Shown: positions 11,857 through 62,547, numbered from the stretch's first letter. The stretch: DNA of 64,000 bases from an uncultured Gemmatimonadota bacterium (GCA_903910555.1 CAIVZZ010000029.1:124001-188000); one strand, 5' to 3'. Notes: generated by a model from the sequence alone, not told the origin. Program-made: numbers and translations.

Positions 11857-13248
11857 ATGACACGCTTTTATCGGCACACGTTCACTCTCGGAGTCGCCGG
11901 CGCGCTGTTCGCCGCGCCGCTCGCGCTTGTCGCACAGGGCGCGCATGCACTTCCGGCCGCGTCGACGGTCGCAAAGGATGTCACGCCGACGTTCGCCAAA
12001 GACGTCGTGCCGATCTTTCAGGCGAAGTGCCAGGTGTGCCATCAGCCGAACTCGATCGCGCCGATGTCGCTCATTTCATACGACGACGCGAAAAAATATG
12101 CGGGGAAGATCAAAGCCCGTGTGGTCGCGCGCGTGATGCCGCCGTGGCATCTCGACAAGAATGTCGGGATCCAGTCGTTCAAGAACGATCGCAGTCTCAC
12201 CGATGCACAGATCGAGACCATTGCAAAATGGGTCGACGCTGGTGCGCCGATGGGCGATCCAAAAGACATGCCGGCGGCGGTGAAATTCCCCGATCCAAAC
12301 AGCTGGCAGCTCGCTGAAAAGTTTGGCCCGCCGGATCTCATCGTGACGTCAAAGGCGTTCACCGTTCCGGCGAAAGGCGAGGACAAGTGGTTCCGCCCGC
12401 TCGTGGAAACCGGCATCACGGAACCGCGCTGGGTGCGCGCGATCGAAGTGCGGCCATCCTTTCCGAACGGAAGAAAAGTTGTTCACCACGCGCTCGCCTA
12501 TTTGTTGCAGGATGAAAAGGGCGTCACCGGCCTCGCGTCGACCGCGATGGATATGAACATGGGACCCGGCCTGTTCATGGAGTGGGCCGTCGGCAAGACC
12601 GGCCAGATATTCCCCGGCGACGCAGGGAAGCTCATGCTCCCCGGCTCGCGCATCAAATGGGAAATCCACGTGCACTCGAACGGCGAAGAAGCAAAAGACA
12701 ACACCGTGCAGCTCGCCGTCTATTTCTATCCGAAGGGCTTCGTGCCGCAGCACCGCACGGTGCTCAAGATGTTCGATGTCACGCGCGGATCGGAACTCGA
12801 CATTCCGCCGAACGAGAAATCAATCACGCAGAATTTTTACGTGATGCAGGCGCCGTCGAGGATCGAGAATTTCCAGCCGCACATGCACATGCGCGGCAAG
12901 GCGATGTCGATGGAAGCGATTTACCCCGACGGCCGCCGCGAGGTGCTGAGCTCGGTGAACAACTTCCAGTGGAAGTGGCACAACAACTACGTCTACTCCG
13001 ACAGCGCTGCGCCGCTCCTCCCGAAAGGCACCACGCTCGTGTTCACCGCGTGGCACGACAACACGGCGTCGAATCCAAACAATCCCGATCCCACGCAGTG
13101 GGTGGGCTGGGGCGATCGCACCGTCGATGAAATGGCGCACTGCTGGATCGATGTGACGTACATGGACCAAGCGGATTTCGATAAAGCGGTGGCGGCTAGG
13201 AAGACGGCGAAGATGGCGGGGATGACGATGCCTGAGAAAAACCAATAA
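11857..13248 (+). CDS. Secreted cytochrome c fused to a copper monooxygenase-like (PHM-fold) region
   Basis: I start the gene at 11857, six bases after GAGGAA; the ATG at 11839 overlapping the upstream stop lacks a comparable site. The protein has 463 residues. A signal peptide covers residues 1-27. Residues 40-130 form a class I cytochrome c-like domain with one haem motif (C58, C61, H62 in CQVCHQ) and a candidate axial Met in RVMPPWH. The rest resembles the ascorbate-dependent copper type II monooxygenase fold, with candidate copper ligands in KVVHHALAYL, IHVHSNGE and FQPHMHMRGK and a late HCWIDV. The fusion suggests haem-delivered electrons to a copper centre in the periplasm. The substrate is unknown, and the copper ligand assignment is by pattern only. 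Confidence 0.78.
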   Translation: MTRFYRHTFTLGVAGALFAAPLALVAQGAHALPAASTVAKDVTPTFAKDVVPIFQAKCQVCHQPNSIAPMSLISYDDAKKYAGKIKARVVARVMPPWHLDKNVGIQSFKNDRSLTDAQIETIAKWVDAGAPMGDPKDMPAAVKFPDPNSWQLAEKFGPPDLIVTSKAFTVPAKGEDKWFRPLVETGITEPRWVRAIEVRPSFPNGRKVVHHALAYLLQDEKGVTGLASTAMDMNMGPGLFMEWAVGKTGQIFPGDAGKLMLPGSRIKWEIHVHSNGEEAKDNTVQLAVYFYPKGFVPQHRTVLKMFDVTRGSELDIPPNEKSITQNFYVMQAPSRIENFQPHMHMRGKAMSMEAIYPDGRREVLSSVNNFQWKWHNNYVYSDSAAPLLPKGTTLVFTAWHDNTASNPNNPDPTQWVGWGDRTVDEMAHCWIDVTYMDQADFDKAVAARKTAKMAGMTMPEKNQ

Positions 13249-13250
13249 AG

Positions 13251-13395
13251 CGAGTGAACTGTTAACCACTAACCGTTGGTCGGTTAACCAAGGTGTAAAA
13301 CTCAGTCCGGGCCGCGAACCTCGTCGAAAAGGTTCGTGGCCCGGACTGAGTCGTTAACAGAGCACCGACCAACAGTTAGTAGTTAACAGTTCACT
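13251..13395. repeat. Full-length nested inverted-repeat element, copy A
   Basis: The ~145-bp element fills the gap between two convergent genes. Outer arms 13253-13284 and 13364-13395 are 32-bp inverted repeats with 30 of 32 positions complementary (ends AGTGAACTGTTAAC and GTTAACAGTTCACT). Inside them a second inverted repeat, 13300-13320 against 13331-13351, forms a GC-rich 21-bp stem with one G-T wobble (core GTCCGGGCC and GGCCCGGAC) and a 10-nt loop. Spacer sequences between arm and stem differ on the two sides, so the element has polarity. Copy B at 16258 matches this copy along nearly its full length when reverse-complemented. Confidence 0.93.
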
Positions 13396-13413
13396 GTTGT
13401 TGCTTTTTGGGAA

Positions 13414-13707
13414 CTACCAATCCCCTCTTTCCTGCCCCCGCCGGTACGCGAAGTACAGCGTGACCAGGTTCCCCGTCGCCCCAATCGACATCCCGGCCCA
13501 GTAGAGCACCCATCCCGTTTTCTCATCGTTCGTATGGAACGAGAACGCGAAAAACACATACGCCACCAGCGTCCACCCGAGACACAGCGCGGCGGTGCCG
13601 ACGAGTTCGCGACGTGAGCGCCGCCGGGTTTCGCGCTCGCTGATGCGCATCTGCTCCGCGCGCTGCTCACGCGTGGGGATTGGCTGCTGATAAACAGTCT
13701 TCGTCAT
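13414..13707 (-). CDS. Small two-helix membrane protein, function unknown
   Basis: The 97-residue protein has a charged, arginine-rich N terminus (residues 1-35, with REQRAEQMRISERETRRRSRRE) followed by two hydrophobic segments, about 37-57 (TAALCLGWTLVAYVFFAFSF) and 66-86 (GWVLYWAGMSIGATGNLVTLYF). The positive N terminus should stay in the cytoplasm. It is convergent with the cytochrome-monooxygenase gene and separated from it by repeat copy A; it is divergent from the M28 peptidase at 13787. I do not recognise the family and see no catalytic motif. Length, a plausible ATG at 13707 and normal hydrophobic pattern support a real gene. Confidence 0.6.
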   Translation of the reverse strand: MTKTVYQQPIPTREQRAEQMRISERETRRRSRRELVGTAALCLGWTLVAYVFFAFSFHTNDEKTGWVLYWAGMSIGATGNLVTLYFAYRRGQERGDW

Positions 13708-13786
13708 AGGCGGTTATTGGTCTTCCGTGAAACCCCGGACTACTTTCATCGTGCCAAGCCCACCTACATAACAAGACGGGATTCCC

Positions 13787-15592
13787 ATGCGTATCGCAAG
13801 ATTTGCACTGCCGCTCCTCGCGCCGCTCGCGCTCCACGCACAGGCCGCGCCAAAGCTGAACAAGTTCGGCAACCCCGAACGCATCACCCCCGCCCCGACC
13901 ACCGCGGCCATCACCGTCCGCGATCTCCAGATCCGTCTCTACCAATTCTCCGACGATTCCATGCAGGGCCGTCAGGTCGGTCGCGTCGGAAATATGAAAG
14001 GCACCAACTACATCGCGGCCGAAGTGAAACGACTCGGCCTCGTCCCCGCCGGCGATAACGGCACCTTCTTTCAGGTACTGCCGTATCACCTGCACTCGTT
14101 CACAAATCATTCGCGCCTGACGGTGAACGGCAACCCGCTCGCATGGCAGCAGGATTGGGTCGCGGTTCCCGGCGCGCGTGCGCCGCGCCCGGTGAGCTCG
14201 GCTGATGTGATTTTCGGAGGCACCGCAGGCGATACGCTCACGCAGATCTCCGCCGCACAAGCGAACGGAAAGTTCGTCGTGCTGCTCGCGGCACCACCGC
14301 AGGCTGCACCAGCCGGCGGACGCGGCGGGGCTGGTCGCGGTGCGATTCCAGGTGCTGCGAATCGCTTTGCCGGCGCGGCAGCGGTTGCAACGGTTGATCT
14401 CGACGCCCTCACACCCGCGCAGCGCACTGCCATCAACGTCCCGACCGTCGCTTCGCAGAGCGGAGGTCGTGCAGGCGGCGGTGGCGGACGCGGTGGACGC
14501 GGTGGCGCGGCTGCGGCCGTTGATTCGGTCGCCCTGCTCCACGCGCAGCTCGACGCGCTCACTCCCGCGGCAACCATCCGTCTCACACGCGCCGCGGCGG
14601 CTCAGCTGTTCGGCCGAGCGTCCGTCGACGGACTCACCCCCGGCATCGCAGGCGGCTCAGTCACCGCGTCGCTCGATTTCATCGAGACGCCGTCGGAGTG
14701 GGCGCGCAATGTTGTCGCGGTAATTCCCGGCAGCGATCCCATACTCAAACACGAGTACGTCGCGATCGGCGCACATAACGATCATATCGGCATGAGCGCG
14801 ACACCAGTCGATCACGACTCGCTCAAGGCGTTCAACGACGAGCGCAACAAAGAACTGATCGCGAACAACATGATTGCACTCACGCCGGCGCAGCTCGCGA
14901 CGATTCACGTCAACATGGACAGCATTCGCAAAATCCATCCGAGGGCACGCGTCGACTCGATCAACAACGGCGCTGACGACGACGGTTCAGGCTCGATGGG
15001 AGTGCTTGAGATTGCCGAGTACATCCAGTCGATGAAGGTGAAACCGAAACGCTCGATTCTCTTTGTCTGGCACACGGGTGAAGAAGCCGGACTCGTCGGC
15101 TCGAATTTCTACACGCACAATCCGACGCTGCCGATCGACTCGATCGTCGCGCAGATCAACATCGACATGATCGGGCGCGGGCGCGCAGAAGATCTTCCCG
15201 GCGGCGGTCCGGACTACCTCGGCGTCGTCGGCTCGTTCTTCGATTCCAAAGATCTTGGAGAGACGGTGTCCGGCGTGAACAAGAAGCGTACAAAACCTCT
15301 GGATCTCGATTACCGCTATGACACCACGCTGACCTGGTCGGGGTACAACAACATCTACGGCCGCAGCGATCACTACAACTACGCGCTGCAGGGCGTGCCA
15401 ATCGCGTTCTTCTTCACCGGGCTCCACGGCGATTATCACCAGCGCACCGACGAAGCCGAGTTCATCGACTACCCGCACTACGCGAAGATCACGAACTATT
15501 TGCGCGACGTCATGCTGGAAGTTGCAAACGGACCGAGACCGCGAATGAACGGATCGCATCCGGCGAAGCCGGTGAAAGCTGTGGTTCCATGA
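13787..15592 (+). CDS. Secreted M28-family zinc aminopeptidase/carboxypeptidase
   Basis: The 601-residue protein begins with a short signal peptide (RFALPLLAPLALHAQA). An N-terminal M28 segment (LRLYQFSDDSMQGR type, then NYIAAEVKRLGLVPAGDNG) leads to a PA-like insert, interrupted by two glycine-arginine tracts (GGRGGAGRG and [11 protein letters not shown]). The catalytic part has all M28 zinc motifs: AIGAHNDHIG, NNGADDDGSG, HTGEEAGL with the catalytic glutamate, INIDMIGRG and the C-terminal LHGDYHQRTDE. It should remove residues from peptide ends outside the cytoplasm. Its TGA overlaps an ATG just before the DUF4412-like gene. Two further M28 genes lie at 28937 and 38396; the latter is the closer match because it shares the DDSMxGRxVG N-terminal block and the glycine-rich insert. 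Confidence 0.92.
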   Translation: MRIARFALPLLAPLALHAQAAPKLNKFGNPERITPAPTTAAITVRDLQIRLYQFSDDSMQGRQVGRVGNMKGTNYIAAEVKRLGLVPAGDNGTFFQVLPYHLHSFTNHSRLTVNGNPLAWQQDWVAVPGARAPRPVSSADVIFGGTAGDTLTQISAAQANGKFVVLLAAPPQAAPAGGRGGAGRGAIPGAANRFAGAAAVATVDLDALTPAQRTAINVPTVASQSGGRAGGGGGRGGRGGAAAAVDSVALLHAQLDALTPAATIRLTRAAAAQLFGRASVDGLTPGIAGGSVTASLDFIETPSEWARNVVAVIPGSDPILKHEYVAIGAHNDHIGMSATPVDHDSLKAFNDERNKELIANNMIALTPAQLATIHVNMDSIRKIHPRARVDSINNGADDDGSGSMGVLEIAEYIQSMKVKPKRSILFVWHTGEEAGLVGSNFYTHNPTLPIDSIVAQINIDMIGRGRAEDLPGGGPDYLGVVGSFFDSKDLGETVSGVNKKRTKPLDLDYRYDTTLTWSGYNNIYGRSDHYNYALQGVPIAFFFTGLHGDYHQRTDEAEFIDYPHYAKITNYLRDVMLEVANGPRPRMNGSHPAKPVKAVVP

Positions 15593-15606
15593 ACTGGAGG
15601 ATGATC

Positions 15607-16254
15607 ATGAAAACAGGAAGAGCAGTGATCGCCTTGATGCTTGCCGCCGCGCCGCTTGCCGCGCAGTCGTTTCAAGGCACGGTGTCGATGACGATCACCG
15701 GTGATAACGGTCCGCCGCAGTCGATGACGTACATGCTGAAGGACGGCAAGATGCGCTTCGAACTCGGCGGCGGAAAAATGGCTGCGATCATCGATCCGGC
15801 CACGCAGCGCATGATGGTGATCATGACCGCGCAGAAGATGTACATGGAGCAGAGCTTCGCCCCCGCGAGCGCGGCTGCACAGCAGCAGATCGCAGGGATG
15901 AAAGCTCCGACGATCGCGCGCACTGGCAAAATGGAGACGATCGCCGGCTTCAAGTGCGAACACGTCACCGCGACAGACGATGACGGTCAGTCAGTGGACG
16001 CCTGCATCTCGAGCGAGCTCGGCGGATTCCGCATGCCGACCGCGAGCAATCCGATGGCGCCGCAGCGCGAGGCAGGATGGATCACCGCGCTCGGATCGGG
16101 AAAGTTTCCGCTGAAGGTGACAAAGAGCGGAAAGACGGTGATGGAAGTGACCGCGATCGACAGGAAGCCGCTGGATGCGGCGCTGTTCACGGCGCCGGAG
16201 GGGTTCCAGAGTTTTGCGATGCCCACAATGCCGAAAAGACCGGGACAGAATTGA
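15607..16254 (+). CDS. Secreted DUF4412-like protein
   Basis: The start at 15607 follows a GGAGG at 15596-15600 by six bases; the in-frame ATG at 15589 overlaps the M28 stop but precedes that site. The 215-residue product has a signal peptide (RAVIALMLAAAPLAAQS). The mature part shows a repeated strand pattern, SFQGTVSMTITGDNG, MTYMLKDGKMRFEL, QRMMVIMTAQKMYM and TIAGFKCEHVTATDD, that resembles DUF4412 proteins, which have a lipoprotein-carrier-like beta fold. Two cysteines (in FKCEHV and DACISS) may pair. It is methionine-rich. The likely partner is the upstream M28 peptidase, with which it is cotranscribed. No enzyme activity is indicated. Confidence 0.6.
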   Translation: MKTGRAVIALMLAAAPLAAQSFQGTVSMTITGDNGPPQSMTYMLKDGKMRFELGGGKMAAIIDPATQRMMVIMTAQKMYMEQSFAPASAAAQQQIAGMKAPTIARTGKMETIAGFKCEHVTATDDDGQSVDACISSELGGFRMPTASNPMAPQREAGWITALGSGKFPLKVTKSGKTVMEVTAIDRKPLDAALFTAPEGFQSFAMPTMPKRPGQN

Positions 16255-16257
16255 AAA

Positions 16258-16403
16258 CGAGTGAACTGTTAACTACTAACTGTTGGTCGGTGTTCTGTAT
16301 GAAAATTAGTCCGGGCCACGAACGCTATCGCGCGGTTCGTGGCCCGGACTGATTTTGTCACCTTGGTTAACCGACCAACAGTTAGTGGTTAACAGTTCAC
16401 TCG
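16258..16403. repeat. Full-length nested inverted-repeat element, copy B (opposite orientation to A)
   Basis: The outer arms 16260-16291 and 16370-16401 match in 31 of 32 positions as an inverted repeat, and the palindrome extends outward through CGAGTGAACT/AGTTCACTCG into flanking AAAA/TTTT. The inner stem 16308-16323 against 16335-16350 is perfect over 16 bp with an 11-nt loop. Asymmetric spacers (GTTCTGTATG on the left, CACCTTGGTTAACC on the right) show that this copy is inverted relative to copy A. It lies between two convergent genes and its right end contains the stop codon of the VPS10/BNR gene. Confidence 0.93.
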
Positions 16404-19400
16404 TTTTTGTGTTTTGTATTCGCGCCCGTCGCGCCCGCCGCGCACACCGGCACCGCCATCCCCGCCCCCGCCGCGTTGATCGCGTGGAGCCCGCTCTTCG
16501 CAAGAATCCCATTGAGCGTCACGAGATCAACCGAGTTAATACTCTTCCAACTCATCACCGCGCTTCGCAGATCGGCGCACCCCCATCCCCACGCCGTAAC
16601 CTGCGGCTCCGTCGGCGCGAGATCGCCAAAATCCAATCCGTCCATCTGACGGTTCAACGCTGCAACCAACCCCGCAAAGTTCGGCACCGGCGGCGGCCCC
16701 GCAGCCGCACCTCCGCGTCCACCGCCGCCACCGCCGCGTCCACCGCCCGCGCCGTTCCCGCCAACGGCGGCGAGTTTCGCCGTGAATGCGGTAATCGCCG
16801 CCGCCGCATCAGCCGGAGGATTCGACGCGCTCAGTTCGCCGAGTGCTGATCGCATTGCCGTCACCTGCGTGTATCCCTCCCACGCTTCGCGCGATCCATC
16901 GTAGAGCTTCCGGAGCAGTTCGTGCTGCGCAGTGAGATCCGCCGCCGTCGCCGGCGAACGTGGATCGTTCTTCACCGTCACCGTCTGCGTGTAGCTCTTT
17001 CCTTCGACCGTCAGTTTCACGGTGTAGACGCCCGGAGGCGCGAGCGGCCCCTCGGGCGACCACGGTGTCTCGCCCGCGACTGCACCCATCATCTGCGCAT
17101 AGCTGTGCGTGAAGGTCGGTGGATTGTCGTAGCGAATATTCCAGTTGACGCGATTCGTACCGGCTGCGGTCGGCATAGGCTTCACGACTTCCTTCCAGAA
17201 CTCGGGAATCGCCTGCAGCGTATCTGTGATCGGCGCGACCGGAACGCTCGACATGTGCCGGACCACGCGGCCGCTCGCATCTGAGATCTCCAGCGTGACA
17301 TCGCCGGCGGGCTTCGATCCGAGCCAGTAATAAATCAGCGCGCCCGGCGGCGGATTCTCGCCGTGCGGTACCTCCGGCGGGAACGGTGTGTCACCATTCA
17401 CGTCGCGGCGAATCCGGTACGCATCACCGGGCTTGAATAGATGCGCTTTCTCCGTTGCGATCGTCGCGCTCATCTGCCGCAGCGGCGAGATGTCGTCGAG
17501 AATCCAGAAACTGCGCCCGTACGTCCCGACCACCAGATCGTTGTCCTTGATCTGAATGTCGCGGTACGACGTGTTCGGCAGATTGAGCATTAGCGATTGC
17601 CAGTCGTCGCCGTCGTTGAACGAGACGTACATCGAGCTCTCGGTTCCGGCAAAGAGCAGCCCGGCCTTCTTTGTGTCCGCGCGAATCACCCGCGCGAAAC
17701 TTCCGCTCGGCTGATCGGTCGCGACGCCGCTCACGATCTTCGTCCACGTCTTGCCGTAATCTTTTGTGCGATAGAAGTACGGCGTGTAGTCACCGACGCC
17801 ATGGTAATCGATCGCGACGTACGCCTCACCCGCATCGTGATGCGACGCGTCGATTCCGGAGATGTCCGCGCGAGTCGGATTCGGCAGATCGGGAATCGTG
17901 ACGTCCGTCCACGTGAGCCCGTGATCCTTCGTGAATTTGATGAGCCCGTTGTTCGTGCCGACCCAGATCACTCCTGCGGCGACGCTCGAAGATGAAAACG
18001 ATTCGATCGATCCGCCAACCGGCGGCGCTGCTTGTGCCGGCGGCGCACCTGCGGCGGCAGCAACGACCGGTGCAGCAGCGCCGCGTCCGCGCCGCGCAGG
18101 CGCGGCACTTCGCGACGGCGGCTCAACGCCTTTCGGATACCCAAGATCGGGGCTGAGTTTTTTCCAGTGCGCGCCGCCGTCGGTTGTCGACATGAGATAC
18201 TGGAATCCCAGCAGCAGCTCATGCGGGTTGGTTGGCGAGAACGCCATCGGCTGGTTGCCGACCTTCCGCAGCGCGAGGCTGGTATCAATGTTCGGGCTGA
18301 TATTGATCCACTGCTCGCTCGGGTAGGTAATCTTCACCACGCCCGCGCTCGGCCCGCCCGAATAAACAATTTTTGGATTGAGCGGATCGGCAACGATGTA
18401 GCCGAACTCGTAGCCCGGCACCGGCAGCCAGTCCATCCAATTCACCGTGCCGAGATTTCCGCGACTGCGCGAGGCGATCGCGCCCGCGTCCTGCTGCGTG
18501 GCGTAGACCCAGTACGGAAAAGAATTGTCGGTCGAGATGTGGTAGACCTGCTCGGTCGCCTGATTGTACCACGAACTCCACGTCAGTCCGCCGTCGAGTG
18601 AGACTGTGGCACCTTGATCGACGCCGAGGAGCATGCGATGGCCATCGGTGGGATCGATCCACATCTGCTGCGGATCGTCGCCTCCCGGTGCGCCCTTGAA
18701 GCCGGTGAAGCTGTTGCCGCCGTCGACCGATTTGAAACTCGACGTGTTGATCGTGTAGACGACATCGGGATTCGACGGGTCAACGTAGACACCGCAGTTG
18801 TAGCCATTCTGCCCGTTCGCAATTCTGCGATCGCCCGCCGCCATCTGACGCCAGCTGTCGCCGCCGTTGTCCGAGCGGTAGAGACCGAAGTTTCCAATCA
18901 GGTACATCCGGCTGCTGTTCGTGTGCATCGCCACCGCTATCGACGTGCGGCCGTTCAGTGCGGGGAGTCCGTTGCCGGTGATCTCCTTCCACGTGATCCC
19001 TTCGTCGAGCGACTTGAACAGCTTCGTGCGCGAGGGCGCTGCGGCTGCTCCGCCGCCGCCCGCGCCACCACCGCGTCCTGCGAGCGGGTCGGTGTAATGC
19101 TGCACGGTCGTCGCGAGCATCACCTTCGGATTGTCGTACGCCCACGCGATTTCCTGACCGCCTGTCTGATTGTCAACGAACAGCGTCTTCGTCCAATTCT
19201 TTCCGCCGTCAGTGCTGCGAAATACGCCGCGCATGTCCATCAGCTTGTGCACGTTCCCCTGCGCGGCGATCAGAACCAGGTTCGGATCTTTGGGATCGAC
19301 GAGAATCGATGGAATCTGTTTTGTCTCATCGAGGCCGAGATGCTGCCATGTCTTTCCCGCGTCGACGGATTTGTACATCCCGTTTCCTTCGTTGATTCCA

Positions 19401-21035: not shown

Positions 21036-21080
21036 GTTAACAGATCACCGACCAATGGTTAGTGATTAACAGTCAACTCG
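21036..21080 (+). repeat. Single-arm relic of the nested-palindrome repeat (C)
   Basis: The segment starting GTTAACAGATCACCGACCAA and ending GATTAACAGTCAACTCG matches the right arm of copy A (GTTAACAGAGCACCGACCAA to the terminal ACT) with a few substitutions. No inner stem or second arm is present. It begins 20 bp after the stop of the acyltransferase-like gene. Confidence 0.8.
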
Positions 21081-21171
21081 CCGTTCGTCCGTGTACTTGA
21101 TGCACCCGCTCACTTGGTGGTCAATTAGTCAGCGTGTCTCCCGCCCTTCCCGCCCCTCTTAAGGAAGAACA

Positions 21172-24083: not shown

Positions 24084-25259
24084 ATGGCCGATCTGATCGC
24101 ACACGAAGCGCCGCGCAAATTCTGGGCGCGACCCGAGCAGTATCTGCTGGATGCCGGCAAAGATGGCGAGCTGCTGATTGCGAAAATCCGCGTCGCGCTC
24201 ACCTTCGTGCTCCTGCTCGTCCCGCTCGCGGACATCATCAGCGCCGCCAACGAAGGGCGCGAGCAGCACTTCATCGGCTTCTTCGTAACGGCGAGTGCGT
24301 GCCTGCTTTCTGTCGGGATTTATTTCCTCGTCGTCAGCGACAGACGCCAGCGCTGGCTTCCGCTCGCCACGAGTCTGTTCGACGTCTCGTTCATCACGCT
24401 GACGCTCGTGTTGTACGGCTTGCTCGTCGGCCCGGTGGTCCTCACGAACAACCGGCTCTCGTTCGACACCTACTTTCTCGCGCTCGGCGGCACGTGCCTG
24501 CGCTATGACAAACGCGTCGCGCTCGTCGCCGGTCTTGCCGCCATCGCGCAGTGGGTCGCGTCGGTTGTGTTCATCCTCATTTATTCCGGCGCTGCCGCGC
24601 TCGCGGTGGACGAGTTCTACGGACGCTTCGCATGGTCGGATCTGATTTCACGAGTAATTCTGCTCGCGACCGCGACGGCGCTGAACGTGTTCATTGTTTC
24701 CGGAATTCAGCAGCAGCGAAAACTCTCGACCGCCGACGCGCTTACCGGCGCGTACAACCGGCGCTTCCTCGACGATTTCCTGCGCAACGAGCTCGCGCGC
24801 GCGATGCGCCACAAGACTGCGCTCGCCATCGCGATGATCGATGTCGATCACTTCAAACAGTTCAACGATACGCATGGCCACGGCGCAGGTGATCGCGCGC
24901 TGCGCCAGGTCGCGCAAACCCTCGAGCTCGCCGTCCGCCGCACCGATCTCGTCGCCCGCTACGGCGGCGAGGAGTTTGTGGTCGTCCTTCCCGACAGCTC
25001 CGCCGAACAAGCGATCGCAAAGATGAACGCCATTCGCGAGGCGATCGAGAACGAACCACTCATGCTCGCCTGGAAAGACGGCCGCAGCGCCCCCGCCAAA
25101 CTCACCGTCAGCATCGGCGTCGCGAGTTGGGACGAGGACCGCGGTCAGAGTGCCTCAGAATTCGTAGCCGAAGCTGATGCCCGCCTCTACGAGGCCAAGA
25201 AGTCCGGCAGAAACAAGGTTGTAGGCCCCTCGCCAATCGGTAATGAAGTCGTTGTCTGA
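24084..25259 (+). CDS. Membrane diguanylate cyclase, first of a tandem pair
   Basis: The 391-residue protein has six hydrophobic segments between residues 33 and 208 that form a membrane sensor, then a GGDEF domain. Active-site GGEEF is at 294-298, the metal-binding MIDVDHFKQFND segment at about 251-262, and the inhibitory RxxD site is R285-D288, so the cyclase should be active and subject to c-di-GMP feedback. It makes c-di-GMP from two GTP at the inner membrane. No known sensor family is recognised for the N terminus. The gene at 25347 is a close paralogue with the same architecture, separated by 87 bp, so this is a local duplication. Confidence 0.93.
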   Translation: MADLIAHEAPRKFWARPEQYLLDAGKDGELLIAKIRVALTFVLLLVPLADIISAANEGREQHFIGFFVTASACLLSVGIYFLVVSDRRQRWLPLATSLFDVSFITLTLVLYGLLVGPVVLTNNRLSFDTYFLALGGTCLRYDKRVALVAGLAAIAQWVASVVFILIYSGAAALAVDEFYGRFAWSDLISRVILLATATALNVFIVSGIQQQRKLSTADALTGAYNRRFLDDFLRNELARAMRHKTALAIAMIDVDHFKQFNDTHGHGAGDRALRQVAQTLELAVRRTDLVARYGGEEFVVVLPDSSAEQAIAKMNAIREAIENEPLMLAWKDGRSAPAKLTVSIGVASWDEDRGQSASEFVAEADARLYEAKKSGRNKVVGPSPIGNEVVV

Positions 25260-25346
25260 AAGCTTCGGTTTTCTGACAGCTGTCGTCTGACGTCGTTGCC
25301 ATTAGTATTGGCGCAATTGTGTAGCGCTGTAGCAGATTAGTCCACC

Positions 25347-26537
25347 ATGCAAGAAGCGATCACCGAGGAACCGACCGGGCCGTCTACTCAGTTCTGGAAG
25401 CGCCCGGAACAGGTCCTTCTCGATGCGGGAAAAGATGGCGAGCTGGTCATCGCCAAGATCCGCATCGCAGTAACCGGTGTGCTGCTCTTAGTCCCCATCG
25501 CCGGAAACATCGAGGCTGCTAACGCCGGCCGGCCCCTTCATTGGATCGGCCTGATCGTCACCTTCGCGGCCTTCGCGCTTTCGTGGGGAATCCTGCTGAT
25601 GGTCTCGCAGGATCGGCGGCAGCGGTGGCTCCCGCTCGCGACCAGCCTCTTTGACGTTTCCTTCATCACGCTGACGCAGCTGCTCTACGCGTTCGCGGTG
25701 AACCCGCTGGTCCTGCTCAACAACAGACTCACCTTCGATACCTACTTCGTTGCGCTCGTTGGAACCTGTCTTCGCTTTGACCGACGCGTCGCGCTGATTG
25801 CCGGCCTCACCGCAATCGCGCAATTCCTTCTCTCCGTCATTTTCGTCGCGCACCACTTCGACGTCGCAGCAATCGGCGACGTTGCCGGCTACGGGCGCTT
25901 CCAGTGGTCCGATCAGTTCTCGCGCGTCGTCCTGCTCGGCGCGGTGACCGCGCTGAATGTGTTCATCGTCAGCGGTCTGCAGCATCAGCGCCGCCTCTCG
26001 AACGCAGACGCGCTCACCGGCGCATTCAACCGGCGTTTCCTCGATCACTATCTGCGGAACGAACTCGCGCGCGCGACACGCCATAAAAGTTCGCTCGCCG
26101 TCGCGCTGGTGGATGTCGATCACTTCAAGCGCTTGAACGATGATTTCGGGCACGCCGCCGGTGACCGCGTGCTGCGCCACATCGCGCAGGCACTTGAAAC
26201 CGCCGTGCGCCGCACCGATCTCGTTGCGCGTTACGGTGGCGAGGAGTTTGTCGTTGTGCTCCCCGAATCGAACGCCGACCAGGCGATGATGCGCATGGAG
26301 CGCATTCGCGAGGCGATCGCCAGCAGCGCACTTCCGCTCGACAAGCACAAGGCGCGCAGTTCGACGCCGAATATGAAAGTCACGATCAGCGTCGGCATCG
26401 CGAGCTGGCCGGACGACGGTCAGCTGTCGACTGAACTCATTGCATCCGCCGACCGCCGCATGTACGAAGCCAAGAAGCGCGGGCGAAATCTGTGCGTGGG
26501 ACCGGCCGCCGCGGCGCTGACCGGCGACGGCGGGTGA
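25347..26537 (+). CDS. Membrane diguanylate cyclase, second of a tandem pair
   Basis: The 396-residue paralogue of the preceding protein shares the block QRWLPLATSLFDVSFITLT in its membrane region and nearly all GGDEF motifs: VDVDHFKRLNDDFGH, inhibitory RxxD at 288-291 and GGEEF at 297-301. Differences cluster at the N terminus, in the loop around residues 160-190 and after residue 320, so the two may sense different cues. The gene should make c-di-GMP at the inner membrane. Its TGA overlaps the GTG start of the aldo/keto reductase, so those two genes are probably cotranscribed. Confidence 0.93.
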   Translation: MQEAITEEPTGPSTQFWKRPEQVLLDAGKDGELVIAKIRIAVTGVLLLVPIAGNIEAANAGRPLHWIGLIVTFAAFALSWGILLMVSQDRRQRWLPLATSLFDVSFITLTQLLYAFAVNPLVLLNNRLTFDTYFVALVGTCLRFDRRVALIAGLTAIAQFLLSVIFVAHHFDVAAIGDVAGYGRFQWSDQFSRVVLLGAVTALNVFIVSGLQHQRRLSNADALTGAFNRRFLDHYLRNELARATRHKSSLAVALVDVDHFKRLNDDFGHAAGDRVLRHIAQALETAVRRTDLVARYGGEEFVVVLPESNADQAMMRMERIREAIASSALPLDKHKARSSTPNMKVTISVGIASWPDDGQLSTELIASADRRMYEAKKRGRNLCVGPAAAALTGDGG

Positions 26538-43472: not shown

Positions 43473-43515
43473 GTCAACAGAAAACCGACGCACAGTTAGT
43501 TGTTAACAGTTAACG
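43473..43515 (+). repeat. Single-arm relic of the nested-palindrome repeat (E)
   Basis: The segment with AACCGACGCACAGTTAGTTG and then TTAACAGTTAACG follows the arm consensus with several substitutions. It fills the gap between the M14 stop and the PPIase start, ending about 9 bp before the ATG. Confidence 0.7.
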
Positions 43516-43523
43516 GGTTTCCC

Positions 43524-54399: not shown

Positions 54400-56922
54400 G
54401 TGCGCGAACTCCGAACGCCGAAGTTGACCGTCTCACGAGCGCTGGAGATTCTCTCGCAAGACCTGCGCTACACGCTCCGCGGATTGCGGCGCGCACCAGG
54501 ATTCACCGCGGCCGTGATTGTCACACTCGGTCTCGGCATCGGCGCGAACGCTGCGATGTTCGGCGTGATCGACCGGCTCATGTTCAGACCGTATCCCTAC
54601 CTGCGCGATCCCGCGTCGGTGCAGCGCTTGTATCTCCAGGGCACCTACCAGCGCGGCAGACTCACGACGATTGGTATGCCGTACACGCGCTACCTCGACT
54701 TCAGGAAGTTCACGACGTCGTTCTCGGATCTCGCCGCATTCGACCCGGAGGTACTCGCGGTGGGACTCGGCGAGTCGGCTGCTGAGCAACCGATCGCCGC
54801 GGTCAGCGCGAGCTTCTTCGGATTCTTCAACGCGCCGCCGGCTTTGGGGAGGTACTTCGGAACGGCAGAAGACACCATTCCCGCCGGCGCAGAAGTCACG
54901 GTGCTGAGCTACGCGTTCTGGCAGTCGCACTTTGGCGGCCGGAATGTGATCGGCCAGCAGCTCGAAATCGGTAATATGTCGTGCACCATTATCGGCGTCG
55001 CTCCCGCCGGCTTCACCGGCGTCGCGGAGGGTGCCGCTCCCGCGTTGTTCGTGCCGATGACGACCTTCGGTGCGCAGCTCGGCGGCAGCAGCAACCGTGA
55101 TTTCTACTGGAAGTACAACTGGGATTGGGCGCAGGTGATGGTACGTCGCAAGCCGGGCGTTTCTATCACGGCGGCATCGCTCGATGCGACGAACGCGTAC
55201 GTGCACAGCCGCGTTATCGCGCGGGCGGCATTTGCCAACCTCGCTCAAGTCGAGCGCATCAGTCCGGTGGCCGTGGTCGGATCGCTGAAGACTGCCGCGG
55301 GCCCGGACGCAGGACTCGAAGCGCGCACACTGCTCGCCGTGACGGGAGTTGCGGCGATCGTGCTGCTCATCGCCTGTGCGAACGTCGCAAATCTCTTTCT
55401 CGCCCGCGCGCTGCGTCGCCGTCGTGAGGTGGCGCTTCGAATTGCGCTCGGCGTTTCGCGACGCCGGCTGCTTGCGCAGGCACTCACCGAAAGCCTCGTG
55501 CTGGCGCTGCTCGGCTGTGCCGCGGGAATTGCGGTCGCACAGTGGGGCGGCGCAACGCTCGCGAATCTGTTCATACCGAATGCCGGGGCGTTCGACCTGC
55601 GATCCGATTGGCGCACGCTCACGGTGGCTGTCGGCGCGGCGCTATTTGCCGGCGTCGCAACTGGCCTCGCGCCGATGCTGCTCAGCGATGACGATCTTTC
55701 AAAAACACTGAAAGCGGGAGTGCGCGAGGGAACACACGCGCGATCAGGAATGCGCTCGACGCTGCTCGTCGCACAGGGTGCGCTCTCTGTCGTGTTGCTC
55801 GTCGGCGCGGGACTATTCGTGCGCAGTCTCGATCATGTGCGCACGATGCCGCTCGGGTACGATGTCAGTCACGTGCTTCAGCTCGCATGGAACCGGCGGG
55901 GCGCGCACCTGAGCGATGCCGAGCAGTTTCCAATTCGCGCGCGGTTGCTCGCAACAGCGGTCACCCAGCCTGGCGTGGAGAGCGCGAGTTGGATCAGCAC
56001 GGTTCCATTCGACGGCACCAACACGCAGTCGCTGTACGTCGACGGGATCGATACTGTGTCGAAGCTCGGCCGCTTTGACAGTCAGACTGCCGATGCCGGC
56101 TACTTCACAACAATGGGAACGCGTATACTCCGCGGCCGCGCCATCACGAGCGCCGATCGCGCCGGTGCGCCGCGCGTGGTCGTCGTCAGCGCGTCGATGG
56201 CGAAAGCAATCTGGCCGGATAAAGACGCACTCGGCCAATGCATTCGCATTGGAATTTGGCAGGCCACGCCGGAATCACTCGGCTGCTCGACCGTCATTGG
56301 GATAGCAGAAGACGCGGTTCACAATCCGCTCACGGACGAACCGAATCGCTACTACCTCCCGATCGAGCAGTTCCCGGAGTTCGGCGCGTGGCACTTGCTG
56401 CTGAAGATGCGCGGCGCGCCCGCAGCCGCCGCTGAACAGGTTCGCCGCGCGCTCCAGCGGGAGATGCCCGGGCAGCAGTATGTGACCGTGCGGCCATTGA
56501 GTGAGCTCGTCGATGACCAGCGGCGCTCGTGGGCGATCGGCGCGACGATGTTCGTTGGGTTCGGATTGCTCGCACTTGTGGTTGCGTCGGTCGGTCTCTA
56601 CGGCGTGATCTCGTACAACGTCGCGCAGAGGATGCACGAGCTGGGTGTGCGTGTCGCACTCGGCGCACAGTCGGCGAACATTCTGCGACTGATCGTTGGC
56701 CAGGGCGTGCGCTTCGCGTGTGCCGGGGTCGGCGTTGGAATCCTGCTCGCGCTGGCCGCGAGCCGCTGGTTCCAGCCGCTGCTCTTTCACCAGTCAGCGA
56801 AGGATCCAATCGTTTACGGGCTCGTAGCTGTCACACTGCTAGCGGTAGCCGTGGCCGCCAGCACCGCGCCTGCGCTGCGCGCCGCAAAAGCAGATCCCAA
56901 TTCCGCTCTCCGATCCGACTGA
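54400..56922 (+). CDS. ADOP/MacB-like ABC transporter permease, first of a tandem pair
   Basis: I use the GTG at 54400, preceded by AGAGAG; an upstream ATG at 54268 lies within the methyltransferase. The 840-residue product begins with the motif LSQDLRYTLRGLRRAPGFTAAVIVTLGLGIGANAAMF, has a MacB periplasmic domain with SASFFGFFNAPPALGRYF and SYAFWQSHFGG, an FtsX block (RALRRRREVALRIALGVSRRRL), a linker, a second periplasmic domain, and a second FtsX block (AQRMHELGVRVALGAQ). It lacks the long charged prefix of the permease at 48213. No ATPase is near. The next gene is a close paralogue 7 bp downstream. The transported molecule is unknown. Confidence 0.9.
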   Translation: MRELRTPKLTVSRALEILSQDLRYTLRGLRRAPGFTAAVIVTLGLGIGANAAMFGVIDRLMFRPYPYLRDPASVQRLYLQGTYQRGRLTTIGMPYTRYLDFRKFTTSFSDLAAFDPEVLAVGLGESAAEQPIAAVSASFFGFFNAPPALGRYFGTAEDTIPAGAEVTVLSYAFWQSHFGGRNVIGQQLEIGNMSCTIIGVAPAGFTGVAEGAAPALFVPMTTFGAQLGGSSNRDFYWKYNWDWAQVMVRRKPGVSITAASLDATNAYVHSRVIARAAFANLAQVERISPVAVVGSLKTAAGPDAGLEARTLLAVTGVAAIVLLIACANVANLFLARALRRRREVALRIALGVSRRRLLAQALTESLVLALLGCAAGIAVAQWGGATLANLFIPNAGAFDLRSDWRTLTVAVGAALFAGVATGLAPMLLSDDDLSKTLKAGVREGTHARSGMRSTLLVAQGALSVVLLVGAGLFVRSLDHVRTMPLGYDVSHVLQLAWNRRGAHLSDAEQFPIRARLLATAVTQPGVESASWISTVPFDGTNTQSLYVDGIDTVSKLGRFDSQTADAGYFTTMGTRILRGRAITSADRAGAPRVVVVSASMAKAIWPDKDALGQCIRIGIWQATPESLGCSTVIGIAEDAVHNPLTDEPNRYYLPIEQFPEFGAWHLLLKMRGAPAAAAEQVRRALQREMPGQQYVTVRPLSELVDDQRRSWAIGATMFVGFGLLALVVASVGLYGVISYNVAQRMHELGVRVALGAQSANILRLIVGQGVRFACAGVGVGILLALAASRWFQPLLFHQSAKDPIVYGLVAVTLLAVAVAASTAPALRAAKADPNSALRSD

Positions 56923-56929
56923 GGAAATC

Positions 56930-59443
56930 ATGCATCAGCGCTTCGCGTGGGTCGAGACTTTTCTTCAGGATCTGCGGTATGCAGTTCGCGGGCTCCGCCG
57001 TTCACCGGGATTCACCGCCGCGGCAGTAATCACGCTCGCACTGGGTATAGGCGCGAACGCGGCGATGTTCGGAGTGATAGACCGGCTCATGTTCCGCCCG
57101 TTCCCTTACATGCGCGATCCGGCGCACGTGCATCGCGTGTATCTGCAGACGACGGGACGTGGGCGCGTCGTGACGAAGTCCACGTTTCCATACACCACCT
57201 ACCTCGATCTCGCGCGGTGGTCCAGTGCGTTCTCAGACCACGCAGCGTTCGCCGTCCATCCGCTCGCGATCGGGTCCGGAGCCGACGCCAAGGAGCGGGA
57301 CGTTGTTGGCGTGAGCGCGTCGTTCTTCGGGTTCTTCGACGCGAAACCCGTTGCAGGCCGCTTCTTCACTGCGCGCGAAGACTCGATTCCTCGTGGTGCG
57401 GACGTCGCGGTTCTCAGCTACGGATTCTGGAAATCGGAGTTCGGCGGACGTGATGTCATCGGCACAAAGCTGGCCGTGGGTCCGCTATATCTGACCGTGA
57501 TCGGCGTCGCGCCAGAGGGATTCACCGGCGTCGCGAGCGGGATTAGTCCATCGTTGTTCATTCCGATCACGACGATCGCATACGCATGGAACCAGAGCAA
57601 TGCGAGCACGTTCTTTTCGAGATACAACTGGGACTGGATGGGCATGATGGTGCGCGAGAAGCCGGACGTGAGTGCCGACGCGGCTTCTGCGAATCTCACC
57701 GACGCGTACCGGCGCAGTATGCTCGCGCTTCAAGCGCTCAACCGATCCACAGGAGCGAAGTGGGGGCTCGCACCGATCGACTCGATTCACCCACACGCAA
57801 TCGCGGGCCCCGTCAGAGAGGCGGCAGGCCCGGCGGCCGGCCTCGAATCACGCACGTTGCTCTGGGTGACAGGTGTAGCCGTCATCGTGCTGCTCATCGC
57901 CTGCGCAAACGTGACGAACCTGATGTTCGCGCGCGTGCTGCGGCGCCGTCGTGAGATCGCCGTGCGCATCGCACTCGGAGTGAGCCGCCGCCGCCTCATG
58001 ATGCAGTTCCTCACCGAAAGCCTGCTCCTCGCGCTCCTCGGCTGCGGCGCGGGAATCGCGATTGCCGAATGGGGCGGTGCGGCGCTGCGGCTGATCATCC
58101 TCGGCGACACCGCCGGCGGAGTCGCCGCCGATCCGCGCACCCTCGGCGTCGCAGCGGCGTTCGCTGCTGGTTCCGGGCTGCTGATCGCGGTGGGGCCGGC
58201 ACTTCTCGCGATTCGCAGCAACCTTGCATCCGACCTCCGATCCGGCGGACGCGGCGGCACTGCACAGCGCTCAGCGCTGCGTTCCGGCTTGCTCATACTG
58301 CAGGGAACGCTCTCCGTTATTTTGCTGATCGGCGCGGGACTCTTCGTGCGCAGCCTCGACAATGTCCGTGACATGCACATGGGATGGGACGCCGAGCCAG
58401 TGCTGGTCGCTCGCGCGAATCTTCGCGGGATGCAACTCGACAGTGTTGCCACGCTCGCGCTCGGGAAGAGGTTATTCGAGGCCGCGCAGGCGATTCCCGG
58501 TGTGAGAGCAGTCGCCAGAATAAATGCCGATCCATTTGGCACGAACTCCGATTACCTCGGTGTTGCCGGGATCGACTCTGTCGCGCGTCTTGGCCGGTTC
58601 AATCAGCAGTGGGCCACGCCCGATTTCTTCAAGGCGGTGGATACGCGAATTGTGCGCGGCCGTTCATTCGACGCGGCCGACCGAGGCGGGGCGCCGCTCG
58701 TGGCCGTGGTCAGCGAATCAATGGCGCGCAGGCTGTGGCCGGGCCATGACGCGATCGGTGAGTGCATGCACGTGAGCTCGGATGCGGCGCCATGCACAAC
58801 CGTGGTTGGTATCGCCGAAGACGCCGTTCAGGGTTCCCTCGCTGACGACCAGCACTTGATGTACTACCTGCCCTTCGATCAGAAGGCCACTGATGGTGGA
58901 ATGGGCGCGCGCACCGTCATCCGCATGACGAGCCGCGACGCCCCGCGTTTTGAAGAGGCGGTTCGCCGCGCGCTGCAGAGTGTGATGCCGGGCGAGTCAT
59001 ACGTAACCGTGTGGCCATTGCAAGACGAAGTCGACGGTCAGCAACGCTCGTGGCGACTCGGCGCGACGATGTTCGTCGGCTTTGGTCTGCTCGCACTAAT
59101 CGTCGCGGCGGTCGGCTTGTACGGGGTGATCGCATACGACGTAGGTCAGCGCACGCAGGAACTCGGCATTCGCGTCGCGCTCGGCGCGCAGACGTCGAAC
59201 ATCATGGGGATCGTCGTCGGTCAGGGATTGCGCTTCGCGCTTATAGGTGTCGCCGCGGGCACCGTAATCGCGCTCGGGGCGGCACGCTGGTTCCAGCCGT
59301 TGCTATTCCACCAATCCGCGCGAGATCCATTCGTGTACGCGCTAGTCGGGCTTACGCTTACGATGGTCGCCGTCGGCGCGAGTGCTGTTCCGGCGCGGCG
59401 CGCGGCAAAAACGGATCCGAACGTGGCGCTGCGGTCGGACTAG
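56930..59443 (+). CDS. ADOP/MacB-like ABC transporter permease, second of a tandem pair
   Basis: The 837-residue paralogue of the preceding gene has the same domain order and many identical blocks (FFGFFDAKPVAGRFF, LRRRREIAVRIALGVSRRRL, GQRTQELGIRVALGAQ). A short unprefixed N terminus (HQRFAWVETFLQDLRYAVRG) leads into the first membrane helix. The 7-bp gap and parallel layout show duplication in tandem and likely joint translation. The pair could form a heteromeric permease using an ATPase encoded elsewhere. The gene converges with the amidohydrolase at 59458. Confidence 0.9.
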   Translation: MHQRFAWVETFLQDLRYAVRGLRRSPGFTAAAVITLALGIGANAAMFGVIDRLMFRPFPYMRDPAHVHRVYLQTTGRGRVVTKSTFPYTTYLDLARWSSAFSDHAAFAVHPLAIGSGADAKERDVVGVSASFFGFFDAKPVAGRFFTAREDSIPRGADVAVLSYGFWKSEFGGRDVIGTKLAVGPLYLTVIGVAPEGFTGVASGISPSLFIPITTIAYAWNQSNASTFFSRYNWDWMGMMVREKPDVSADAASANLTDAYRRSMLALQALNRSTGAKWGLAPIDSIHPHAIAGPVREAAGPAAGLESRTLLWVTGVAVIVLLIACANVTNLMFARVLRRRREIAVRIALGVSRRRLMMQFLTESLLLALLGCGAGIAIAEWGGAALRLIILGDTAGGVAADPRTLGVAAAFAAGSGLLIAVGPALLAIRSNLASDLRSGGRGGTAQRSALRSGLLILQGTLSVILLIGAGLFVRSLDNVRDMHMGWDAEPVLVARANLRGMQLDSVATLALGKRLFEAAQAIPGVRAVARINADPFGTNSDYLGVAGIDSVARLGRFNQQWATPDFFKAVDTRIVRGRSFDAADRGGAPLVAVVSESMARRLWPGHDAIGECMHVSSDAAPCTTVVGIAEDAVQGSLADDQHLMYYLPFDQKATDGGMGARTVIRMTSRDAPRFEEAVRRALQSVMPGESYVTVWPLQDEVDGQQRSWRLGATMFVGFGLLALIVAAVGLYGVIAYDVGQRTQELGIRVALGAQTSNIMGIVVGQGLRFALIGVAAGTVIALGAARWFQPLLFHQSARDPFVYALVGLTLTMVAVGASAVPARRAAKTDPNVALRSD

Positions 59444-62494: not shown

Positions 62495-62539
62495 AACCTT
62501 GGTTAACCGACCAACAGTTAGTAGTTAACAGTCAACTCG
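62495..62539 (+). repeat. Single-arm relic of the nested-palindrome repeat (F)
   Basis: AACCTTGGTTAACCGACCAA, then CAGTTAGTAGTTAACAGTC and AACTCG, corresponds to the reverse complement of the left arm with its GGTTAACCAAGG spacer. Unlike relics C, D and E, which match the right arm, this one matches the left arm. It lies between convergent genes. Confidence 0.85.
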
Positions 62540-62547
62540 TCGGACAC

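What the first reader, a model, noticed from the sequence alone, without database searches (positions are those of the whole stretch)
13251..16403. Nested palindromic element in two full copies of opposite orientation
Copies A (13251-13395) and B (16258-16403) share outer 32-bp inverted arms (30/32 and 31/32 matching) around a separate GC-rich inner stem (21 bp and 16 bp). Reverse-complemented B aligns with A end to end, including asymmetric spacers such as GGTTAACCAAGGTG, so this is one polar element and not two unrelated hairpins. Both lie between convergent genes about 3 kb apart. I do not recognise it as REP, attC, a known MITE or an IS end. It could be a non-autonomous mobile repeat or a bidirectional terminator family.
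Basis: partly seen in the sequence, partly recalled or inferred. Interest (0 to 1): 0.82.

Follow-up and report, generated by a model that had tools for sequence, protein, structure and literature searches.

The report
Dispersed palindromes tied to IVP gene
The two nested hairpins are copies of a repeat scattered over the whole genome, and its arms are the same sequences that bracket a small four-helix-bundle gene of unknown function, which suggests that this gene family and its repeats form a system that spreads short palindromes through bacterial genomes.

Summary
In detail: two nested palindromes (13253-13395, 16260-16401; folding z -13.5 and -17). They belong to a genome-wide family: about 29 full copies (136-146 bp), four 92-bp copies without the inner stem, and six half copies. 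At one locus next to pth, the same arms bracket a 141-aa four-helix-bundle gene (23S_rRNA_IVP, PF05635).

The link is general. 50 of 59 IVP loci lie inside inverted repeats above the 99th percentile of mismatched controls, and the arms show 7-nt periodicity. The pth-linked IVP genes form one clade, yet the arms I compared differ between lineages. In four tested arm types, the dispersed copies occur almost only in genomes whose own IVP carries those arms. The genome has no RAYT (Y1 transposase) and no reverse transcriptase.

Best reading: gene-less, REPIN-like satellites of an IVP element. Their inner stem covaries and resembles a bidirectional terminator. The association is shown; IVP-driven mobility is inferred. 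One site is empty in a sister genome. I found no report of this association in the open-access papers searched.

The parts
13253..13395 (-). Copy A of the palindromic element, complete (P spacer left, Q spacer right on the + strand; Q-P when read on the - strand)
   Evidence: (L006)
13253..13284 (+). Outer arm, left, of copy A
   Evidence: (I4)
13300..13351 (.). Inner GC-rich hairpin of copy A (covarying module, terminator-like)
   Evidence: (I5)
13364..13395 (-). Outer arm, right, of copy A
   Evidence: (I4)
16260..16401 (+). Copy B of the palindromic element, complete (Q spacer left, P spacer right)
   Evidence: (L001)
16254..16291 (+). Outer arm, left, of copy B with its outward extension
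   Evidence: (I3)
16302..16356 (.). Inner GC-rich hairpin of copy B; terminator-like on both strands
   Evidence: I6; sites 16333-16351 + and 16323-16309 -
16370..16407 (-). Outer arm, right, of copy B with its outward extension
   Evidence: I3
21037..21081 (-). Diverged half copy (one arm, Q spacer)
   Evidence: (D7)
43474..43518 (-). Half copy of the short (92-bp) type
62496..62540 (-). Half copy, P spacer (ACCTTGGTTAACC)

Best explanation
The two elements are gene-less miniature members of a repeat family whose source element is a single-copy gene for an IVP-type four-helix-bundle protein (PF05635 / TIGR02436) that lies between the same arms. The arms are degenerate heptad repeats facing each other, so each copy folds into one long hairpin in ssDNA or RNA. 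Shown: the family, the bracketed IVP gene, the co-divergence of IVP-locus arms and dispersed arms, the covarying inner stem, one empty site, and the absence of RAYT and RT genes from the genome. Inferred: the basic, ring-forming IVP recognises the heptad arms of its own locus and, with host replication or repair functions, copies hairpin units elsewhere in the chromosome, as RAYTs are thought to do for REPINs. The inner hairpin with its A- and T-tracts acts as a bidirectional terminator, which makes insertions at gene 3' ends tolerable.
For: Genome-wide family: 65 arm matches with up to 3 mismatches and 0 in the reversed-pattern control. The only close arm pair that brackets a gene other than the palindrome itself encloses an IVP gene, G000:C11:20880-21488, with TIGR02436 E 1.9e-31 and PF05635 E 3.8e-31; the same arrangement is at the orthologous locus of G002 (L081). 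IR around IVP genes: 50/59 loci above the 99th percentile of mismatched controls, 39/59 score 40 or more against 1/472 controls; arm autocorrelation +0.158, +0.146 and +0.098 at lags 7, 14 and 21, near zero or negative at other lags. Arm heptads: P = 0.003 for this family. Same architecture in annotated plasmids of Cyanobacteriota, Azospirillum and Gemmatirosa. Co-divergence: pth-linked IVPs form one clade (support 90/89), and the GTTAAC-type members G000, G002 and G012 form a 100/99 subclade; dispersed copies are strong in the same genomes. The arms of the pth-IVP of G009 are dispersed in G009 (11 hits) and those of G001 in G001 (19 hits), with only short hits in three other genomes. The arms of another IVP (L121) are dispersed in exactly the 3 of 21 genomes whose IVP carries them. 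L120-type arms have about 30 copies. No Y1 transposase, no RT. Covariation: 79 double-change cells against 33.5 shuffled, 0/500. Empty L003 site in G002.
Against: IVP proteins have no known catalytic motif and no experiment shows mobilisation. No target-site duplication was found. Nine of 59 IVP loci show no inverted repeat above control, and the L121 arms show no heptad signal (P = 0.31). G010 has a few diverged copies but no pth-linked IVP was found; its pth gene is not in the assembly either. The 59 loci are not independent: some are the same gene from two collections, and most are Gemmatimonadota MAGs. Gene conversion among copies could give co-divergence without transposition. Only one clean empty site was obtained for this family.
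Confidence: 0.55

Rival explanations
1. Host function: the IVP is a regulator or RNA/DNA chaperone, and the dispersed hairpins are its binding sites (in 3' UTRs or at terminators). Arms and protein co-evolve as site and binder, including autoregulatory sites at the IVP gene itself. Copies arise by occasional duplication or gene conversion, not by IVP-driven movement.
For: The pth-linked IVP is single-copy and vertical. Copies A, B and L010 keep their positions in G002 with compensatory changes in the inner stem. The pattern at gene 3' ends would fit.
Against: The arms bracket the gene as inverted ends, like an element, in most IVP loci; autoregulatory sites would not need to lie on both sides. 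At least one site is empty in a sister genome. Copy sets turn over between congeners.
Confidence: 0.22
2. Ordinary MITE: non-autonomous copies of a DDE-type insertion sequence whose transposase acts in trans; the IVP gene only hitch-hikes between such ends.
For: Terminal inverted repeats of 32-50 bp, multicopy, intergenic, about 142 bp.
Against: No other close arm pair in the own genome encloses a gene; the one that does encloses an IVP gene. No clear target duplication in the flanks. The pattern recurs with unrelated arm sequences at IVP genes across phyla, which hitch-hiking on one IS would not give. DDE transposases were not searched for directly.
Confidence: 0.1
3. Only bidirectional intrinsic terminators that have been copied around and are kept by selection on transcription termination.
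For: The inner hairpin covaries, has A- and T-tracts, scores as terminator on both strands in copy B, and lies mostly between convergent or tandem genes.
Against: A 22-bp GC hairpin would do; the long conserved outer arms, the 92-bp copies without the GC stem, and the shared arms at the IVP gene are not explained.
Confidence: 0.08
4. Compensatory changes come from hairpin-templated (quasipalindrome) correction during replication, not from selection or function; the family is inert debris.
For: Inner stems of different copies are each nearly perfect but differ from one another.
Against: Does not explain the cognate arms at IVP genes.
Confidence: 0.05

Closest known systems
REPIN / RAYT systems (PMC3116915)
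   Same: Short extragenic palindromic units in many copies; a single-copy, mainly vertical gene flanked by the same palindromes; species-specific repeat sequence that follows the gene.
   Different: No Y1/HuH transposase in the genome. The partner gene is an IVP four-helix bundle. Units are 142 bp with 32-50-bp heptad arms, not 20-40-bp GTAG/CGTC-tagged REPs.
23S rRNA intervening sequences (IVS) with S23/IVP ORF, e.g. Coxiella (PMC4990558)
   Same: An IVP-family ORF between complementary ends that fold into one long stem (28 bp in Coxiella); suspected mobile element.
   Different: Here the elements lie between protein genes, not in rRNA, and have many gene-less derivatives and heptad arms.
Heptameric tandem repeats: GGGAATC in Xanthomonas and GGGGAYT in Nostoc (PMC4692102); TAACTGA in Beggiatoaceae, Cyanobacteria and Bacteroidetes (PMC4679880)
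   Same: 7-nt units, intergenic; inverted pairs in Xanthomonas. X. campestris also holds XCC0516 (PDB 2GSC), the closest solved IVP.
   Different: Arms here are degenerate heptads; in the passages I read neither paper links the repeats to an IVP gene.
Avd of diversity-generating retroelements
   Same: Same protein superfamily: weak PHROG match to Avd, E 4e-4; Avd and 2GSC homology noted in PMC10053308.
   Different: No reverse transcriptase in this genome.
IS-derived MITEs
   Same: Short, terminal inverted repeats, no ORF.
   Different: No parent IS found, no target duplication found, co-variation with IVP instead.

Membership tests
REPIN/RAYT | Partner gene is a Y1 (HuH) transposase, PF01797 | tested here: not met
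   0 matches in the own genome; 5 of 14 control genomes ring
REPIN/RAYT | Dispersed palindromes match those flanking a single-copy partner gene and change with it between species | tested here: met
   with IVP as the partner
23S rRNA IVS | IVP (S23) ORF between complementary ends | tested here: met
   G000:C11:20880-21488; the window copies themselves carry no ORF
23S rRNA IVS | Inserted in 23S rRNA helices 9, 25 or 45 | tested here: not met
   Copies lie between protein genes; Rfam finds no rRNA at 13100-16600
IS-derived MITE | Parent IS with the same ends | tested here: not met
   Among 65 arm matches in the own genome the only close pair that brackets another gene encloses an IVP gene; other genomes not exhaustively searched
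IS-derived MITE | Target-site duplication | tested here: inconclusive
   Flanks of 45 copies show a gradual outward extension of the inverted repeat (GTGTACRACG) and no fixed duplication by eye; one empty site gives no duplication
Heptameric repeat families | 7-nt periodicity | tested here: met
   P = 0.003 for this arm; mean excess autocorrelation +0.158 at lag 7 over 38 IVP arms
Bidirectional intrinsic terminator | GC-rich hairpin followed by a T-tract on both strands | tested here: met
   Copy B on both strands; at least 5 T of 8 after the stem in 18/39 and at least 5 A of 8 before it in 25/39
Bidirectional intrinsic terminator | Transcripts end there | not testable with these tools
   No term-seq or RNA-seq available
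Diversity-generating retroelement | Reverse transcriptase with TR/VR | tested here: not met
   No PF00078 in the own genome

The most novel reading that the evidence does not exclude
IVP four-helix-bundle proteins are the drivers of a widespread, so far unnamed class of mobile repeats. Each IVP recognises its own heptad-periodic arms and spreads gene-less palindromes through the chromosome, without a Y1, DDE or serine/tyrosine recombinase or an RT. This would also explain the heptameric repeats of Cyanobacteria and Xanthomonas and the origin of 23S rRNA IVSs.
Probability: 0.35. Interest if true: 0.93.

Novelty: new variant of a known kind. Interest (0 to 1): 0.8.

Why it matters
IVP/S23 proteins are common and have had no function outside the rRNA IVS context, and heptameric intergenic repeats have been reported with 'no mechanism evident' for their spread (PMC4679880). 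The association shown here joins the two and makes both testable: repeat type should follow IVP type in any genome. If mobility depends on IVP, it is a REPIN/RAYT-like system built on a protein with no known nuclease or polymerase fold. If not, IVPs are dedicated binders of a genome-wide hairpin set at gene ends.

Tried and rejected
REPIN/RAYT as such: no Y1 transposase. DGR or retroelement: no RT. Known RNA family: no Rfam match at E up to 0.1. Segmental duplication of two copies: rejected by the genome-wide family. Defence or phage origin of the IVP: no PADLOC match and no phage record by tblastn. Composite transposon between A and B: each copy is complete, and A and B keep their places separately in G002. 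attC was only considered by eye; no integrase search was made. A clean target-site duplication could not be defined, because the inverted repeat fades outwards over about 10 nt. Several orthologous sites (L007, L008, L012) were too diverged to call empty or occupied with confidence. Paper searches for a published IVP-repeat link found none; only open-access papers are held, so a published link may exist elsewhere.

Full report
Check of the observation. Copies A (13253-13395) and B (16260-16401) are as described: outer arms 30/32 and 31/32 (37/38 when extended), inner stems 21/22. Both fold far better than shuffles (z -13.5 and -17.2). The arm core occurs six times in the window with up to three mismatches, against none in 100 shuffles.

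A genome-wide family. The window is part of a 3.2-Mb, 32-contig assembly (G000). The 142-bp element finds 89 matches there, and the 28-nt arm core 65, with 0 for the reversed control pattern. Read out, these are about 29 full copies of 136-146 bp, four 92-bp copies that keep the arms but lack the GC stem, six half copies, and one 609-bp copy with a gene inside. Ends are modular: spacer P (TTAACCAAGGT) or Q (GTTCTGT), in P-P, Q-P and Q-Q combinations. The inverted repeat fades outward as GTGTACRACG. Within the genus the family occurs in G000, G002, G012 and weakly G010, and in no other of the 13 genomes. In G002 several contigs end at or close to a copy, as repeats break assemblies.

Anatomy and evolution of the inner hairpin. 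In 39 aligned copies the inner stem has 14 of 20 pairs with changes on both sides, and 79 double-change cells against 33.5 in shuffles (0/500 reach it); sliding the partner by one to three columns destroys the signal. It is preceded by an A-tract and followed by a T-tract in a window that is 63% G+C, and copy B scores as a terminator on both strands. Copies lie between convergent (20), tandem (19) and rarely divergent (3) genes. This fits a bidirectional terminator.

Presence, absence and persistence. Flanks of seven copies were searched in the genus. Copies A, B and L010 sit at the same place in G002, with inner stems that differ from G000 but still pair. The L003 site is empty in G002: two convergent genes end 3 bp apart there, while in G000 about 170 bp including the element lie between the stop codons. 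So the family has both persistence and turnover.

The gene between the arms. At G000:C11:20880-21488 the two arms enclose a 141-aa ORF that is a four-helix-bundle IVP protein (PF05635 E 3.8e-31, TIGR02436 E 1.9e-31). Its nearest solved structure is XCC0516 of Xanthomonas campestris (2GSC, E 3e-15). G002 has the same arrangement at the orthologous locus, and G012 has the gene with one clear arm.

The link is general. G000 has eleven IVP genes, and nearly all lie inside long inverted repeats of their own, each different. Over 59 IVP loci, 50 exceed the 99th percentile of mismatched controls and 39 score 40 or more against 1 of 472 controls. The arms have excess autocorrelation at 7, 14 and 21 nt and not at other lags. 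The arm of this family reads AGTGAAC TGTTAAC TACTAAC TGTTGGT (P = 0.003). In annotated plasmids, four-helix-bundle genes of Pseudanabaena, Aulosira, Scytonema, Nostoc, Geminocystis, Anabaena, Calothrix, Azospirillum and Gemmatirosa are bracketed by inverted short repeats, mostly heptamers such as AAAAGCT, TCAGGAG, GGGAAAA, GGTGACA, GGGAACA and GGGTGTA. In some of the closely related cyanobacterial cases mismatched pairs also score high, because these heptamers are shared, so that evidence is descriptive.

Cognate co-divergence. An IVP gene lies beside pth in ten of thirteen genomes of the genus. The nine pth-linked proteins put in the tree form one clade (90/89), and the three with GTTAAC arms form a 100/99 subclade, so the gene was inherited in place. 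The arms I compared differ between lineages. Arms of the G009 gene are dispersed in G009 (11 hits) and those of the G001 gene in G001 (19 hits), with only short hits in G003, G005 and G002. The G001 copies I folded include near-perfect gene-less hairpins. The arms of a different IVP (L121) are dispersed in exactly the three of 21 genomes whose IVP carries them, and the L120 arms have about 30 copies in G000. G010, which has a few diverged GTTAAC copies without a pth-linked IVP, lacks pth itself in its assembly, so it is not a clear exception. At the pth locus of G004 there is no IVP gene and a short intergenic gap; G003 keeps a stretch like the G009 arm.

What drives it. There is no Y1 transposase and no reverse transcriptase in G000 (the searches ring in control genomes). 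Among the 65 arm matches the only close pair around another gene is the IVP one. IVPs of this genus carry net positive charge (+2 to +9). I therefore commit to a REPIN-like satellite system with IVP as the cognate protein. The association and co-divergence are shown. Recognition of the arms by IVP and movement by it are inferred, and the chemistry is unknown. That IVP forms rings is from my own knowledge of the 2GSC structure, not tested here. The main rival is that IVP is a host regulator and the palindromes are its sites.

Known work. IVSs in 23S rRNA carry an IVP ORF between complementary ends and have been suspected of mobility (PMC4990558). Heptameric repeats are known in Xanthomonas and Nostoc (PMC4692102) and in Beggiatoaceae, Cyanobacteria and Bacteroidetes (PMC4679880); in the passages read, neither paper connects them to an IVP gene. 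REPINs and RAYTs (PMC3116915) are the closest working model, but their defining transposase is absent here.

Noticed in passing
L120 = G000:C5:82600-85200 and its dispersed copies: A second, comparably large family of about 30 palindromes (AGTCTAG heptads, core CAGACGCTAGAC...GGTTTTCAGACGC) belongs to another IVP gene of the same genome.
   Followed up: partly
L197, L204, L199 (cyanobacterial plasmids): Four-helix-bundle genes with flanking repeat arrays sit between CRISPR genes (cas6-IVP-cas4 in two plasmids, cas10-IVP-cmr3 in one).
   Followed up: no
L200, L201, L202 upstream of position 1201: The upstream heptamer array runs to within a few bases of the IVP start codon (...GGAGTCAGAATAAATGAG), so a heptamer may serve as ribosome binding site, as suggested for TAACTGA repeats near start codons in Beggiatoaceae.
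   Followed up: no
G003 and G004 pth loci (L228, L229): IVP gene absent beside pth: G004 has a short gap there, G003 keeps a remnant that resembles the G009 arm.
   Followed up: partly
window 24345-26188 and 54457-59259: Pairs of 72-76% identical stretches spaced 1272 and about 2500 bp apart, probably tandem paralogous genes.
   Followed up: no
L123, L124, L125, L126 (G000): A second, more distant group of IVP genes (about 47-56 bits, longer reading frames) also lies between long inverted repeats.
   Followed up: partly
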